A stretch of DNA of 64,000 nt from contig OY282371.1 of the NCBI GenBank assembly GCA_958295715.1, positions 1,063,183-1,127,182 of the forward strand, read 5' to 3'. Of the stretch, positions 38,002-44,112 are shown in pieces (the stretch's first letter is position 1; every line of letters begins with the position of its first letter). A model generated the notes under the pieces. The model did no database searches. It was not told the DNA's origin and saw nothing but the letters and a program-made list of their open reading frames with translations. Made by a program: the position numbers and the translations under genes. The DNA comes from an uncultured Dehalococcoidia bacterium. Lineage in GTDB: Bacteria > Chloroflexota > Dehalococcoidia > Lucifugimonadales > GCA-2712585.

Positions 38002-38030
38002 CGCCCGGCCACCCCACCTTTTCTCCTTTC

Positions 38031-38360
38031 CGTCATTCCCGCGCAGGCGGGAAGGGCGCGTGCGCCCACTTAGTTTTGAAGAGCGCTGATTCTGCGTCGG
38101 AAGCTCCGGCTTCCCGCCCGCACCCCTTATCCGCCATTCCCGCGCAGGCGGGAATCCATCTTTCTTACCCCCGCTGATACAGGGCGACCGAGCAACGACG
38201 CTCAAGGGCGGCGCTTGGGATTGAAGCGTTGGTTATCGGATGTAGGCTTCCTGGATTCCCGCCTTCGCGGGAATGACGGGAAGAAAGCATGCGGAATGAC
38301 GGAACGGAGAGGGGAGGCGGGAAAGATGGATTCCCGCCTTCGCGGGAATGACGGGAAGAA
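38031..38360. repeat. Dispersed repeats with one composite copy (gap 38002-38491)
   Basis: A composite copy (38031-38098) has both hairpins and the TTTTGAAGAGCGCTGATTCT tail. Three plain palindromes follow at ~38133, ~38253 and ~38331. The last two end in the same GAATGACGGGAAGAAAGCAT, a short tandem-like duplication. The aminotransferase gene ends 30 bases before the cluster. Confidence 0.85.
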
Positions 38361-38439
38361 AGCATGGGGAATGCCGAACGGAGGGGCAGACGGAAGGCCG
38401 CGCGCCGCTCCCCCTTCCAACCCCGCCGTCCTTCATCTA

Positions 38440-38448
38440 TGGTAAAAT
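38440..38448 (+). promoter_or_regulatory. Extended -10 promoter for the histidine-decarboxylase-like gene
   Basis: TGGTAAAAT, 44 bases before ATG 38492, just past the repeat cluster. No clear -35. Confidence 0.5.
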
Positions 38449-38491
38449 GCCATGCGCCCGTAGCAACCTGACCAAAACCGGGGGACTGTAC

Positions 38492-39610
38492 ATGGACACT
38501 CAGGCTCGCCTAGACGCGCTCCTAGCCCACTTTGAGACCCACAGCAAGACCTTCGCCGGCTACCCCGTCAACCAGAACTTCGACTACTCGGCCCTGCTGC
38601 CCTTCCTGCGGTACTCCGCCAACAACGTAGGCGACCCCTTCCACGGCAGCAACTTCCAGATAAACAGCCACGAGATGGAGCGGGAGGTGGTGGGCCGCTT
38701 CTCCGACCTCATGCGCATCCCCCGGGAGGACGCCTGGGGCTACGTCACCTCCGGCGGCAGCGAGGGCAACATGTACGGCCTGTACATGGCCAGGGAGATC
38801 TTCCCCGACGGCGTCTTCTACTTCTCACAGGACACCCACTACAGCGTCCTCAAGATCCTGCGCATCCTCAAGGCGCGGCACATCATGGTCAAGAGCCAAA
38901 AGAACGGCGAGGTGGACTACGACGATCTCTACGAGATGGTCCGCATCCACCGCGACGCCCCGGTCATCTTCATGGCCAACGTGGGCACCACCATGAAGGG
39001 GGCCATAGATGACATAAGCAAGATGCGGGGCATCCTGGACGACCTGGCCGTCACCGACTCCTACATCCACGCCGACGCCGCCCTCAGCGGCATGATACTC
39101 CCCTTTGTCGACGACCCGCAGCTTTACGGTTTCGACGCCGGGGTCGACAGCGTGGCCGTCAGTGGACACAAGATGATTGGCTCCCCCGTCCCCTGCGGGA
39201 TCGCCCTCACCAAGCGGGCCTACGTCAACCGCATCTCCCGCTCCATCGAGTACGTGGGCGTCCTCGACACCACCCTATCCGGCTCGCGCTCCGCCTTCAC
39301 GCCCATCATGTTGTGGTACGCCTTTCAACTCCACGGCTTGGATGGCTTCAAGCGAATGGTCCAACAGTCCCTGGAGGTGGCCGAGTACGCGGTCAACCGC
39401 TTCAACGATAGCGGCATCCCGGCTTGGCGGCACAAGAACTCCATCACCGTGGTCTTCCCCAAGCCGTCCGAGGAGATCATCCACAAGTGGCAACTCGCTT
39501 CCTACGAAAACATCGCCCACGTCATCACCATGCCTCACATAACCCGCGAGGTTGTGGACGCGGTGGTGGATGACTGCCTGGCCGATTCCCGCCAAAGGGC
39601 GGTGCAATAA
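38492..39610 (+). CDS. PLP-dependent histidine decarboxylase-like enzyme
   Basis: A 372-aa group II decarboxylase close in length (~378 aa) and pattern to bacterial PLP histidine decarboxylases. Seen: AGYPVNQNFDYSALLPFL, YVTSGGSEGNMYGLY, FSQDTHYSVLKILRIL with the PLP-stacking His, HADAALSGMILPFV, and SVAVSGHKMIGSPVPCG with the Schiff-base Lys. It would make histamine or a related amine. ATG 38492 is chosen as the natural family start; longer readings run through repeats. The ACT-domain gene follows 15 bases later. Confidence 0.85.
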   Translation: MDTQARLDALLAHFETHSKTFAGYPVNQNFDYSALLPFLRYSANNVGDPFHGSNFQINSHEMEREVVGRFSDLMRIPREDAWGYVTSGGSEGNMYGLYMAREIFPDGVFYFSQDTHYSVLKILRILKARHIMVKSQKNGEVDYDDLYEMVRIHRDAPVIFMANVGTTMKGAIDDISKMRGILDDLAVTDSYIHADAALSGMILPFVDDPQLYGFDAGVDSVAVSGHKMIGSPVPCGIALTKRAYVNRISRSIEYVGVLDTTLSGSRSAFTPIMLWYAFQLHGLDGFKRMVQQSLEVAEYAVNRFNDSGIPAWRHKNSITVVFPKPSEEIIHKWQLASYENIAHVITMPHITREVVDAVVDDCLADSRQRAVQ

Positions 39611-39625
39611 ACTAAGGAGACTCTA

Positions 39626-40018
39626 ATGACCAGAATCGTTATCATGGCGGACAACAAGGTGGGCGTTATCGCTGACATCAGCCGGGCCTTGGCCGACGCC
39701 AACATTAACATTGAGACCATTAGCGCGGAGGCCCTGGGCGACAAGGGGACGATTACCCTGACCACCAACGACTACGACGGCGCCCTCACCGTTCTTACCG
39801 AGGCCGGCTTCAAGAACATGACCGACGAGGCCCTTATCCTGAGCGTGCGCGACGAGCCCGGCGTCCTGGCCAAGGTGGCGGGGAGTTTGAAGGATGGAGG
39901 CGTGAACATCGAAAGCCTGCACATCATCGACCGGCGGGAGGGCCGCGCGGTCATAGCCATAACCGCCGACGACCCGGAAAAGGCCGAGTCCCTCCTGGAC
40001 CGGAGCACGATAGTTTAA
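39626..40018 (+). CDS. Tandem ACT-domain protein
   Basis: A 130-aa protein made of two ACT domains. The first is RIVIMADNKVGVIADISRAL with NINIETISAEAL; the second is LSVRDEPGVLAKVAGSLKDG with VNIESLHIIDRR. ACT domains bind amino acids and regulate enzymes of their metabolism. No catalytic domain is attached. AAGGAG precedes the ATG. Co-transcription with the decarboxylase suggests it senses the substrate amino acid. Confidence 0.88.
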   Translation: MTRIVIMADNKVGVIADISRALADANINIETISAEALGDKGTITLTTNDYDGALTVLTEAGFKNMTDEALILSVRDEPGVLAKVAGSLKDGGVNIESLHIIDRREGRAVIAITADDPEKAESLLDRSTIV

Positions 40019-40060
40019 GTGAAGCGAAAGGGTTGATACTTCTGAGTAAGGAATTGTTAT

Positions 40061-42415
40061 ATGTTTAAAACAAACCCGGAAGACCTAATTGATCTCCTTA
40101 AGAAAGCGGATAATGGCAGCCTTCAGTTGCCTCAGTTCCAACGGAGCTTCGTCTGGGACGACGAGAATGTCCAGAATCTCATCGCTTCAGTACTTAGAGG
40201 TTATCCCATTGGCGCCTTTCTCTCTCTGGAAACGGGTGGAGAGATCAATTTCAAACCGCGTCTCTTAGAAAGAGCCAAAAAAGAAAGTTCCGGAGTCTCC
40301 CCGGACGTGCTTCTGTTAGACGGCCAACAGCGACTCACTTCACTCTATCAGGCTATCTACTCTAAGGACCCGGTACGCACCATTAACTCTCGCGGGAGGG
40401 AGGTTAAACGCTTTTACTATCTAGACATCCCAAAAACCCTGCTCACAGGAGCCGACATAAGAGACGCGTTCATCTCAGTGCCTGCCGACCGAATTTTGCG
40501 AAGCGATTTTGGGCGAGCTATCGAGAAGGATCTATCGACCCGCGACCAGGAGTTTGAAAATCACGCCTTCCCGCTTAATCGATTGTTCGATTATGCGCAT
40601 AATTGGTTATACGGCTGGAGGGACCATTGGAGGGAGCGGGAAGAGGGTATTTTCGATTTGGAACGGCATTTTTACGACAGTATTCTACGACCGATTCTCA
40701 ACTACAAAATCCCTGTGATTGAGCTGGACAAGAGCAATGGGCGTGAGGCTATATGTCTCATCTTCGAAAAGGTCAATACGGGTGGTAAGCCTCTCGACAC
40801 CTTTGAGCTTCTCACTGCTATCTATGCCGCCGAAGAGTTTGACCTTCGTTTGGACTGGTATGGCCCAACGGACAAATCCGAACCTGGCCGTAGCAGTAGG
40901 ATTATGGAATTGCCCACTCGCCTTGATGTATTGAGTGGGGTAACTAGCACAGACTTTTTGCAGGCGTGTGCGCTACTCCACACGCGAGAGGAGCGGTTGG
41001 CCAAAGAACGTGAAGGCTATGAAGGTAGAAACCTCCCTCAAGTGAGTTGCACTAGAGAGGCATTGCTTAGCCTGCCCCTCGGATCATATAGGAAATACGC
41101 CGATATAGTCGAAAGTGGGTTTAAGCAGGCAGCTAGTTTTCTAAATGAGCAGAAGGTAATTTCACAAAGAGACGCGCCATACGCTCCATTGATTGTGGGG
41201 TTGGCTGCCACCTTTGCGATCCTTAGACGTGAGAATGGGACTGTTTCGGCTGTAGAAAAAGGCATGATTGGTCGTTGGTTTTGGTCAATGACCTTCGGTG
41301 AAGTCTACGGGTCGCGCACTGAGTCATTGCTTGCCCGTGACGTGCCCGAACTCGTTAAATGGCTCACAAACGCCGGCCCTCAACCACGCACCCTAGACGA
41401 CGCATCCTTCCAACAAAATCGTCTCTTGTCCATGACCACCCGAAATTCTGCGGCCTATAAGGGTGTGCACGCATTGCTGATGGGGTTCAATCATGGGTGT
41501 CGAGACTTCGTGAACCGGAAGCCCGCGGATCTGATGACGTATTTTACTGATAGAATTGACATACACCACGTCTTTCCACAAGCTTGGTGCAGGAAGAACG
41601 GAATCCCGGATAATCTCTCGAACTCAATCATCAACAAGACGCCTCTCTCCGCTGAATCGAACAGGTTCATAGGTGGCGGCGCTCCATCTCAATATCTGCG
41701 CCGCATTCAACAGAGGTACGGTATATCTGCCAATGACCTTGATGAGATCCTTAAGACACATCTCTTAGAGCCGGAACACCTTCGCAATGATGATTTCGAT
41801 TCCTTCTTTAAAGCCCGTTCCAACGCCCTTGCGTCAGCTATATCAGATGCCATGGGTAAGCCCTTTGTCACAGAACAGGGCGCCGATGAGGAAGAGTTGG
41901 ATGTTGACGAGCCAGAGGAAGATAACGGGAACAGGGCAGGGCTTGACCTTGCTGATTTAATCGCCGCCGGCGAGTCCGACGACGTTGAGTTCAAGTCAAC
42001 CCTCCGCGTCAATCTCCACACCCGCCAACCGGACAAGCGCATGGAGCACGCCGCGCTGAAGTCCCTCGCCGGCTTCCTGAACACCAAGGGCGGCACGCTG
42101 ATTATCGGCGTCTCCGATGATGGCTCTCCGGTGGGCATTGAGGCCGACAAGTTCCCCAGTGAAGACAGGATGAACTTGCACCTTGTGAACATCGTGAACG
42201 CCAGATTGGGGCCAACCGCCATGACCTCAATCCAAACCAGCTTCGTTGACTGGGAAGGGGAGCGCGTGCTGACAGCCGCCTGCCGGCGTTCCCCCGCCCC
42301 CGTCTACCTCAAGGATGGCGACGCCCAGCGGTTTTACGTGCGCACCGGCCCGGCCACCACTGAGCTAACGGCGAGCCAAATGGTTCGGTACATAAGCGAC
42401 AACTTCAAAGGCTAA
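40061..42415 (+). CDS. DUF262/GmrSD-type defence protein fused to an AlbA_2 domain
   Basis: A 784-aa three-part protein. Residues ~1-330 form a DUF262 (ParB/GmrS-like) domain: LQLPQFQRSFVW at 21-32 and the diagnostic DGQQR at 87-91. Residues ~440-600 hold an HNH-like DUF1524 segment with DIHHVFPQAW (H502-H503), then conserved Asn in NSIINKTPL. A Glu/Asp-rich linker (EEELDVDEPEED) leads to an AlbA_2/Schlafen-type domain (~628-780): ESDDVEFKSTLR, GFLNTKGGTLIIGVSDDGSP. GmrSD proteins cut modified phage DNA. Base use is AT-rich up to ~41940 and GC-rich after, so the last domain may come from a resident gene. Confidence 0.85.
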   Translation: MFKTNPEDLIDLLKKADNGSLQLPQFQRSFVWDDENVQNLIASVLRGYPIGAFLSLETGGEINFKPRLLERAKKESSGVSPDVLLLDGQQRLTSLYQAIYSKDPVRTINSRGREVKRFYYLDIPKTLLTGADIRDAFISVPADRILRSDFGRAIEKDLSTRDQEFENHAFPLNRLFDYAHNWLYGWRDHWREREEGIFDLERHFYDSILRPILNYKIPVIELDKSNGREAICLIFEKVNTGGKPLDTFELLTAIYAAEEFDLRLDWYGPTDKSEPGRSSRIMELPTRLDVLSGVTSTDFLQACALLHTREERLAKEREGYEGRNLPQVSCTREALLSLPLGSYRKYADIVESGFKQAASFLNEQKVISQRDAPYAPLIVGLAATFAILRRENGTVSAVEKGMIGRWFWSMTFGEVYGSRTESLLARDVPELVKWLTNAGPQPRTLDDASFQQNRLLSMTTRNSAAYKGVHALLMGFNHGCRDFVNRKPADLMTYFTDRIDIHHVFPQAWCRKNGIPDNLSNSIINKTPLSAESNRFIGGGAPSQYLRRIQQRYGISANDLDEILKTHLLEPEHLRNDDFDSFFKARSNALASAISDAMGKPFVTEQGADEEELDVDEPEEDNGNRAGLDLADLIAAGESDDVEFKSTLRVNLHTRQPDKRMEHAALKSLAGFLNTKGGTLIIGVSDDGSPVGIEADKFPSEDRMNLHLVNIVNARLGPTAMTSIQTSFVDWEGERVLTAACRRSPAPVYLKDGDAQRFYVRTGPATTELTASQMVRYISDNFKG

Positions 42416-42464
42416 GCTAAGGGCGTCCGGCTCACCGGTCTCGCGCCGCTCCGGGTCTGCGCGG

Positions 42465-43649
42465 CTACTCCCCCATGCGGTACAACTTCACCGCGTTGTC
42501 GCAGGTTATCTTCCGCAGGCTCCCCGCGTCCAACTGCCCCATGGTGCTTCTTATCACCTCCTGGGAACCGGGCCAAACCCCGTCGGGATGGGGGTAGTCC
42601 GACCCCCACATCAGGTTCTCAACCCCAATATACTCCGCCATGTAGCCCACGCACGGGTCTTGTTGGAAGGTTGTCGCGCCCTGCCGGTGCCAGTACTCGC
42701 TGGGCAGCAGACTCATGGGAGGGTCAAACTTCTCATCCAGAAGGCTATCCTTGTACTTGATGTCCATACGCTCTATGACGAAGGGAATCCACCCGGCGCC
42801 GCACTCCCCAAGAACGAAGCGGAAGTCCGGCAGCCTTTCGCAGGTCCCGCTCATGATGATGCTGATGAGCCACTCGGACCCGGCCAGCTGTCCCAGAGGC
42901 AGCGACGTGCCCACAAAGGCAAGTTGGTTTTGGGTGGGACTCTCCGCGGAGAAGGACTTCTGCCCCTCCTCGCCCTCAATGGGTCCCGGCACCTTGATGC
43001 CGCCTCCACCGATGTGGAAGGAGATGGGCAGGTGGGTCTCGGCGGCCGCGTCCCACAGCGGGTCCCAGAAGCCGTCGCGCAGGTAGATGGGCCTAGTGGT
43101 CCCGCTGACGTAAAGCTCCCCGCCCCGGATGCCCCCAAGCCCGGCGGCGCGGCGCAGCTCCTTGGCCCCCAACGCCGGGTCGTGAATTGGCATACAGGCG
43201 AGGGCGTACCACCGGCCCGGCGTCGCGGCGCAGAACCCCGACACCCAATCGTTGTAGATGCGGTAGCTCTCCGTGAGGACCTCGGGGTTCCTGATGCGCA
43301 TCCCCGCGGTGGTCATGCCGTAGAGGATCTCGGCGTCCACGCCGTCTAAGGCCATGTCATTCAGCCGCAACTCCGGGTCAATGGCGTGGGCGCCGCCTTC
43401 GTAGTAACCGGCCTCGTACATCCTGTCGACCTGACGTCGATGTCCCCGCCGGGGCGCGCTGAAGCCGAAGCCCAGCCCGCCGTAAACCCCCAACTCGCGG
43501 CCCTCCGTAACCCACCGGGGGCCGTTGTCGGTGTCCACGACACGAGGCATAGCCTCCTTCAGGCCTTCTGGCCCGTTTCGCTCGAACAGGTCGCCGGGCA
43601 GCCAACTCATATCCATGTGGGAATCCGCCGAGACCAGATTGTACTCCAT
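42465..43649 (-). CDS. Amidohydrolase family protein (SAR202-type paralog 1)
   Basis: A 394-aa Amidohydro_2 (COG2159-like) TIM-barrel enzyme. DSHMDMSWLPGDLF at residues ~9-22 holds the first metal motif as HxD. Also seen: LPISFHIGGG (metal His), GECGAGWIPFVIERMD, and NLMWGSDYPHPDGVWPGS with the catalytic Asp. Relatives are decarboxylases or hydrolases of aromatic acids. ATG 43649 follows GGAGG; the longer frame upstream has no site. Paralogs lie at 54740-55924 and 61517-62689. It converges with the defence gene, 49 bases apart. Confidence 0.88.
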   Translation of the reverse strand: MEYNLVSADSHMDMSWLPGDLFERNGPEGLKEAMPRVVDTDNGPRWVTEGRELGVYGGLGFGFSAPRRGHRRQVDRMYEAGYYEGGAHAIDPELRLNDMALDGVDAEILYGMTTAGMRIRNPEVLTESYRIYNDWVSGFCAATPGRWYALACMPIHDPALGAKELRRAAGLGGIRGGELYVSGTTRPIYLRDGFWDPLWDAAAETHLPISFHIGGGGIKVPGPIEGEEGQKSFSAESPTQNQLAFVGTSLPLGQLAGSEWLISIIMSGTCERLPDFRFVLGECGAGWIPFVIERMDIKYKDSLLDEKFDPPMSLLPSEYWHRQGATTFQQDPCVGYMAEYIGVENLMWGSDYPHPDGVWPGSQEVIRSTMGQLDAGSLRKITCDNAVKLYRMGE

Positions 43650-43743
43650 GAGACACCTCCGGATGCTCTGATTTCGCCTAATATACCACAGCCGAGCCTT
43701 GGGGGAGAGGGCCAACGCTTCTTTTCTGCGCCGCCTCCCCCTG

Positions 43744-44112
43744 TCCGTCATTCCCGCGCAGGCGGGAATCCAGGAACTCTGCGCCTGTCATTGAGGCATT
43801 GCCATAATGGGGCTGGCCCTTACGGACTGATGGGGGGCGCGCCGTGAAGTGGTTGGCCGGCGTTACGCCGGGGGAAAGATGGATTCCCGCCTGCGCGGGA
43901 ATGACGGAGGGGGGGGCGGGAATCCAGGAAGCCTACGACGCAGAGCCAACGCTCTTCAAAACAAAAGTGGGCGCGCGCCCTTCCCGCCTGCGCGGGAATG
44001 ACGGGAGGGAGGCGGGAATCCAGGAAGCCTATGACGCAGAGCCAGCGCTCTTCAAAACAAAAGTGGGCGCGCGCGCCCTTCCCGCCTGCGCGGGAATGAC
44101 GGAGGGGGAGGC
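43744..44112. repeat. Dispersed repeats with two inverted composite copies (gap 43650-44201)
   Basis: One plain palindrome (~43748-43772), another at ~43882-43905, and two composite copies on the minus strand (43932-44003 and 44028-44102). The latter are nearly identical tandem units sharing ACGCAGAGCC...GCTCTTCAAAACAAAAGTGG. They read through as a spurious 103-aa ORF. Confidence 0.88.

What the first reader, a model, noticed from the sequence alone, without database searches (positions are those of the whole stretch)
40061..42415. DUF262-DUF1524-AlbA_2 fusion with a base-composition switch inside one gene
Seen: DGQQR (DUF262), an HHxFP-type HNH segment and an AlbA_2/Schlafen-like end in one 784-aa frame. 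The first ~625 codons are AT-rich and unlike the neighbours; the last ~155 codons switch to the GC-rich local style near 41940. Known: DUF262/DUF1524 proteins (GmrSD, BrxU, SspE kin) restrict modified phage DNA, and AlbA_2 domains bind nucleic acids. Inference: an imported restriction module fused onto a resident AlbA_2 gene, giving a single-gene defence protein with a nucleic-acid sensor or second effector.
Basis: partly seen in the sequence, partly recalled or inferred. Interest (0 to 1): 0.7.

Follow-up and report, generated by a model that had tools for sequence, protein, structure and literature searches.

The report
Restriction protein with a swapped-in RNase-like tail
One bacterial gene joins a known kind of virus-DNA-cutting enzyme to a domain resembling animal antiviral tRNA-cutting proteins (Schlafen, SAMD9), and the join is visible because the two halves have different base composition and different closest relatives.

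Summary
The 784-aa gene at 40061-42415 has a DUF262 (GmrSD_N) NTPase domain, an HNH-type domain with the H..N..N signature, a disordered acidic linker, and a C-terminal SLFN_AlbA_2 domain. Third-position GC jumps from 0.53 to 0.81 at codon 633 (631-637), within 0-7 codons of where the AlbA_2 domain starts (0 of 2000 permutations reach it). The gene is chimeric. Its head is 65% identical to, and 100/100 sister of, a tail-less protein in another family of the order, beside the same two genes. Its tail is 60-64% identical to tails of a different DUF262 subfamily whose heads match it at only 11-39%. The fused architecture is not unique: it recurs across the phylum, in Acidimicrobiia, on plasmids including an archaeal one, and on viral contigs, and tails joined this head subfamily probably three times. 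The head models onto BrxU (Z about 20). The tail models onto the SAMD9 tRNase and Schlafens, and keeps SLFN13's catalytic E-E-D triad. Best reading: a GmrSD/BrxU-like single-gene restriction protein carrying a Schlafen-type RNase as second effector. The 'resident AlbA_2 gene' is not shown; 'sensor' is less likely than effector. Activity is untested. New variant of a known kind.

The parts
40061..42415 (+). 784-aa DUF262-HNH-AlbA_2 protein
   Evidence: ORF; Pfam; AlphaFold2 mean pLDDT 89.9
40088..40825 (+). DUF262/GmrSD_N NTPase (ParB/Srx-like) domain, residues 10-255, with Q27-R28, D87-G-Q-Q-R91 and F235xxxN239 invariant
   Evidence: Pfam E 8e-32; invariant columns in 40 homologs; match to BrxU
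41549..41680 (+). HNH/His-Me-finger-type nuclease segment (residues 497-540; H502/H503, N525, N534)
   Evidence: invariant or nearly invariant columns; strand-strand-helix arrangement in the model; HNH structure matches, Z about 6
41879..41941 (+). acidic disordered linker, residues 607-627; G016's homolog ends with a stop at this place
   Evidence: pLDDT under 50; alignment
41954..41972 (+). composition changepoint (seam), codons 631-637
   Evidence: GC3 changepoint lnLR 21.7, 0 of 2000 permutations
41972..42367 (+). SLFN_AlbA_2 domain, residues 638-769, with E638, E643 and D686 matching SLFN13 E205, E210 and D248
   Evidence: Pfam E 4e-16; profile match to Schlafens; fold match to SAMD9 tRNase Z 12.6-12.9 and Schlafens Z 8-10
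38002..42464 (.). 4.46-kb block absent at the orthologous site of same-genus genome G002
   Evidence: flanking homology stops at about 38001 and resumes at about 42461
38492..39610 (+). PLP-dependent (histidine-decarboxylase-like) gene, upstream companion shared with G016
   Evidence: Pfam Pyridoxal_deC E 4e-24; 75% identity and same order in G016
39626..40018 (+). double-ACT-domain protein, second upstream companion shared with G016
   Evidence: Pfam ACT E 5e-18; 65% identity and same order in G016

Best explanation
The gene encodes a chimeric, single-gene defence protein. Residues 1-600 are a GmrSD/BrxU-like modification-dependent restriction scaffold: a DUF262 NTPase thought to sense invading (probably modified) DNA, and an HNH nuclease that cuts it. 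Residues 630-784 are a Schlafen/SAMD9-type AlbA_2 domain joined by recombination at a flexible acidic linker to a head whose nearest relative ends at that linker. The tail kept the three-carboxylate RNase triad, so the likeliest role is a second effector: when the head engages phage DNA, the tail cleaves tRNA or other RNA and stops translation, as a back-up to DNA cutting. Shown here: domains, motifs, predicted folds, chimeric origin, recurrent joining. Inferred from families: sensing and cutting of modified DNA. Inferred only: RNase activity of the tail and its coupling to the head.
For: Domains. All three DUF262 motifs (QR, DGQQR, FxxxN) and the HNH residues are invariant or nearly so over 40 homologs. 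BrxU is the top structure match over residues 2-601, Z 19.8-20.2; DndI and SspE follow. Tail model pLDDT 94 matches SAMD9 tRNase (Z 12.6-12.9, 148-152 residues) and Schlafens. E638 and E643 are invariant and D686 is at least 90% conserved in 29 tails, aligned with SLFN13 E205/E210/D248, which are needed for RNA cleavage (PMC5862951). Chimera: head sister to tail-less G016, 100/100; tail nearest to another DUF262 subfamily; GC3 break at the domain border. Defence context: G016's gene abuts a type II restriction pair; related heads lie on plasmids and viral contigs; PADLOC candidate-defence models match.
Against: No activity data. No other obvious defence gene lies around it in the window; the neighbours are metabolic. 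AlbA_2 domains can bind nucleic acids without cutting, and SLFN13 uses two lobes where this tail has one. The HNH segment is not recognised by Pfam in this protein. The tail position within its subtree is poorly resolved, so the exact donor is unknown.
Confidence: 0.5

Rival explanations
1. The tail is a nucleic-acid-binding or sensing module that helps the DUF262-HNH restriction part find its target or regulates it, without cutting RNA itself.
For: AlbA_2 domains include DNA-binding examples (SAMD9 DNA-bound structure 7ksp); the domain sits at the end of a complete restriction-like protein, and most relatives of this head do without it.
Against: The E-E-D residues needed for SLFN13 cleavage are invariant or nearly so in 29 diverged tails, which a pure binding role does not need; the best fold matches include a tRNase.
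Confidence: 0.3
2. The tail is ancestral to this head lineage and was lost many times (G016 and other tail-less members), so the gene is an old full-length protein, not a chimera.
For: The window and G035 tails could be sisters (AU p 0.40); tails and heads both recur widely.
Against: Tailed heads do not group: window+G035 rejected, p 1e-8; all three rejected, p 7e-26. The three tails as one clade are rejected, p 0.005. Parsimony gives 4 changes and most of this head clade lacks tails. The GC3 break at the border is not expected for an unbroken gene. No AlbA_2 remnant lies beside G016's gene.
Confidence: 0.1
3. The protein is not a defence protein: the head may be a housekeeping or stress NTPase tied to the HDC-ACT genes beside it.
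For: HDC and ACT genes adjoin it in both G000 and G016; no defence genes near it in this window.
Against: HDC-ACT pairs occur in about 30 genomes of the order without it beside them, and the head occurs without HDC-ACT in most genomes; G016's copy abuts a type II restriction pair; the patchy spread fits mobile defence genes.
Confidence: 0.07
4. Assembly artefact: two unrelated sequences joined in the assembly.
For: Abrupt composition change inside one gene.
Against: The gene lies inside a 2.35-Mb contig of a two-contig assembly; the join is in frame and at a linker between domains; the same architecture exists in many other genomes.
Confidence: 0.02

Closest known systems
BrxU / GmrSD family type IV restriction enzymes (GmrSD, Eco94GmrSD, TgvB)
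   Same: DUF262 N-domain with QR, DGQQR and FxxxN motifs plus HNH-type nuclease region in one chain; best structural match BrxU, Z about 20 over residues 2-601
   Different: About 17% identity to BrxU; HNH part below Pfam DUF1524/GmrSD_C threshold; extra AlbA_2 domain that is not among the extra domains listed in the 2015 GmrSD survey (DUF4268, DUF4357, DNA_binding_1; PMC4619093)
SspE and DndI (phosphorothioate-sensing DUF262 proteins)
   Same: DUF262 fold and overall layout (Z 6.7-10); SspE pairs DUF262 with an HNH-type (DUF1524) nuclease (PMC10952713)
   Different: No Ssp/Dnd modification genes seen next to this gene; extra AlbA_2 domain
Schlafen RNases (SLFN13, SLFN14, SLFN11, SLFN5) and SAMD9 tRNase domain
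   Same: AlbA_2 fold of the tail (Z 8-13) and the SLFN13 E-E-D triad
   Different: One AlbA_2 lobe instead of the two-lobed SLFN core; bacterial; fused to a restriction-type protein
Clade-B DUF262-HNH-AlbA_2 proteins (G203, G182, G853, G186, Acidimicrobiia L021/L023, named here)
   Same: Same domain order and near-identical tail family, 55-64% identity in the nearest ones
   Different: Heads 11-39% identical to the window head along its length; no composition break at the seam

Membership tests
GmrSD family (type IV restriction) | N-terminal DUF262 with QR, DGQQR and FxxxN motifs | tested here: met
   PF03235 E 8e-32; Q27-R28, D87GQQR91, F235, N239 invariant
GmrSD family (type IV restriction) | C-terminal DUF1524/GmrSD_C HNH nuclease (D/E-H-N-N) | tested here: inconclusive
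   Residues H502/H503, N525, N534 conserved and model matches BrxU to residue 601, but no Pfam GmrSD_C hit in this protein and only sub-threshold hits in relatives
GmrSD family (type IV restriction) | Cuts DNA carrying modified cytosines, NTP-stimulated | not testable with these tools
   Needs biochemistry or phage assays
Schlafen-type RNase | AlbA_2 (SLFN) fold | tested here: met
   PF04326 E 4e-16; fold matches Z 8-13
Schlafen-type RNase | Three-carboxylate catalytic triad (SLFN13 E205, E210, D248) | tested here: met
   E638, E643, D686 in profile alignment; invariant or nearly so in 29 tails
Schlafen-type RNase | Pseudo-dimer of two AlbA_2 lobes | tested here: not met
   Only one AlbA_2 domain in the chain; a homodimer could supply two, not tested
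Schlafen-type RNase | tRNA or other RNA cleavage | not testable with these tools
   Needs biochemistry
SspE/Dnd phosphorothioate systems | Encoded with dnd/ssp modification genes | tested here: not met
   Neighbouring genes are PLP-decarboxylase, ACT, aminotransferase and amidohydrolase genes; the rest of the genome was not searched for dnd/ssp

The most novel reading that the evidence does not exclude
Schlafen-type RNase tails are exchangeable effector cassettes that recombine repeatedly onto DUF262-HNH restriction scaffolds, giving single proteins that attack both phage DNA and host or phage RNA. The window gene is a caught-in-the-act example whose seam is still visible in its composition.
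Probability: 0.4. Interest if true: 0.72.

Novelty: new variant of a known kind. Interest (0 to 1): 0.52.

Why it matters
DUF262-HNH proteins are known DNA-targeting defence enzymes, and Schlafen/SAMD9 AlbA_2 domains are known tRNA-cutting antiviral effectors. A single protein holding both would be a direct bridge between restriction and translation shut-off, and its repeated assembly from parts would show how such two-tier defences arise. No paper in the searched library holds both 'AlbA_2' and 'DUF262'. The claim is directly testable with point mutants in laboratory E. coli.

Tried and rejected
Resident AlbA_2 donor in the same genome: none found (G000 has one AlbA_2, this one). G002's AlbA_2 gene is not a close relative of the tail (no match at E 1e-6). 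AlbA_2 remnant behind G016's head: none. Whole HDC-ACT-DUF262 block moving as one unit between G000 and G016: not shown, the HDC tree does not join the two genes with support. Nesting of the window tail inside clade-B tails: not resolved, clade-B tails as one clade not rejected (p 0.52). Window and G035 tails as independent acquisitions: not shown by the tail tree alone (p 0.40), but their heads are not sisters (p 1e-8). NCBIfam: no family. Papers on PADLOC's HEC-05 or PDC-M55C as named systems: no description found.

Full report
What is there. The ORF at 40061-42415 encodes 784 residues. Pfam gives GmrSD_N (DUF262) at residues 10-255 and SLFN_AlbA_2 at 638-769. Over 40 homologs, Q27-R28, D87-GQQR91, F235 and N239 are invariant, and H502, H503, N525 and N534 are invariant or nearly so. 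These are the QR, DGQQR and FxxxN motifs of DUF262 and the H..N..N of the His-Me/HNH nuclease described for GmrSD proteins (PMC11411939; PMC4619093). AlphaFold2 gives mean pLDDT 89.9 with one disordered stretch, residues 607-627, between head and tail.

The composition switch. GC3 is 0.532 up to codon 633 and 0.815 after it. The best single break is at codon 633 (631-637, window 41954-41972), lnLR 21.7 against a maximum of 9.9 in 2000 shuffles, also when only synonymous codons are shuffled. Neighbouring genes have GC3 0.81-0.90. The break falls at the first residues of the AlbA_2 domain. Twelve other tailed proteins show no break at their seams. Low GC3 of the head is not special: the same family is below its surroundings in G016, G035, G096, G169, G027 and G038. 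So composition alone does not prove a recent import of the head; what stands out is a GC-rich tail on a low-GC head.

Where the parts come from. In the same order, G016 (another family) holds a head 65% identical, next to the same HDC and ACT genes (75% and 65% identical), and it ends with a stop in the acidic linker with no AlbA_2 after it. The head tree joins the window and G016 at 100/100. The tail is closest to tails of a different DUF262 subfamily (G853, G203, G182; 60-64%), whose heads match the window head at only 11-39% in 60-residue steps, rising to 70-73% in the tail. Two more members of the tail-less head clade carry tails: G035, whose nearest heads are tail-less (72% identity), and G633, whose tail belongs to another tail group. 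Holding the tailed heads together is rejected (p 1e-8 for two, 7e-26 for three), as is holding the three tails together (p 0.005). Tail presence needs 4 changes on the head tree. The simplest history is at least three joinings. The window and G035 tails could still be sisters (p 0.40), so the donor and direction of that exchange are open.

The genomic site. Same-genus genome G002 has the flanking aminotransferase and amidohydrolase genes side by side; homology stops at about 38001 and resumes at about 42461, so 38002-42464 is an insertion in G000 or a deletion in G002. G004 also lacks these three genes there. HDC-ACT pairs are common in the order, but the DUF262 gene adjoins them only in G000 and G016 among those examined. 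G000 has no second AlbA_2 and only one other, weak, match to the protein.

How common the architecture is. Tailed DUF262 proteins were found in several families of the order (G035, G203, G182, G186), in the class and phylum (G268, G301, G432, G633, G853, G616, G723), in Acidimicrobiia (L021, L023), on plasmids of Haloquadratum and Sinorhizobium and on two viral contigs (L188, L221). Tail-less relatives of the head at about 40-46% identity are on plasmids, phage records and viral contigs. G016's copy abuts a type II restriction enzyme (PADLOC E 4e-76) and methyltransferase. PADLOC's candidate families HEC-05 and PDC-M55C match the head at E 1e-20 to 1e-23.

Likely working. The head model matches BrxU over residues 2-601 (Z 19.8-20.2; the high rmsd shows that the domains are placed differently), then DndI and SspE. 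BrxU and GmrSD cut DNA with modified cytosines under NTP control, and SspE senses phosphorothioate DNA (PMC10952713; PMC11411939). The tail model (pLDDT 94.3) matches the SAMD9 tRNase domain (Z 12.6-12.9) and Schlafens (Z 8-10). Profile alignment places E638, E643 and D686 on SLFN13 E205, E210 and D248, whose mutation abolishes or reduces RNA cleavage (PMC5862951); they are invariant or at least 90% conserved in 29 tails. A recent survey describes Schlafen RNases as back-up effectors beside DNA-targeting BREX systems and cites a preprint on bacterial Schlafens in anti-phage defence (PMC12839542; the preprint was not read). From this I infer, without direct evidence, that the tail is a second, RNA-cutting effector set off when the head engages foreign DNA. 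A binding or sensing role remains possible.

Verdict. Observation confirmed; interpretation partly supported; the architecture is recurrent and not unique to this gene. No paper in the searched library pairs AlbA_2 with DUF262, and the GmrSD survey lists other extra domains. That is absence in what was searched, not proof of novelty.

Noticed in passing
window 38024-38360, and about 0.5-2.2k, 17.3-17.8k, 20.0-20.2k, 33.4-33.7k, 43.7-44.1k, 48.0-48.25k, 51.3-51.56k, 63.8k: A dispersed palindromic intergenic repeat (ATTCCCGCCTTCGCGGGAATGACGG) in many copies; four sit just upstream of the HDC gene, at the left end of the inserted block.
   Followed up: partly
window 42465-43751 and genomes G000, G002, G004: Large expansion of Amidohydro_2 paralogs: 29 to 46 matches per genome for one window gene.
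   Followed up: no
L043:9292-12134 (G016): A type II restriction enzyme and methyltransferase pair with low GC3 (0.50-0.56) lies directly beside the tail-less sister of the window gene.
   Followed up: partly
L051:10826-14067 (G004): The junction that holds the insertion in G000 carries other DNA, about 3.2 kb including an aminotransferase-like match, in G004, so it may be a variable site.
   Followed up: no
L007:1498-3216 (G039) and locus L106 (G427:C1:441237-441695): The same AlbA_2 tail family also ends proteins that gave no DUF262 match to the query; L007 looked repeat-like by eye and is low GC.
   Followed up: no
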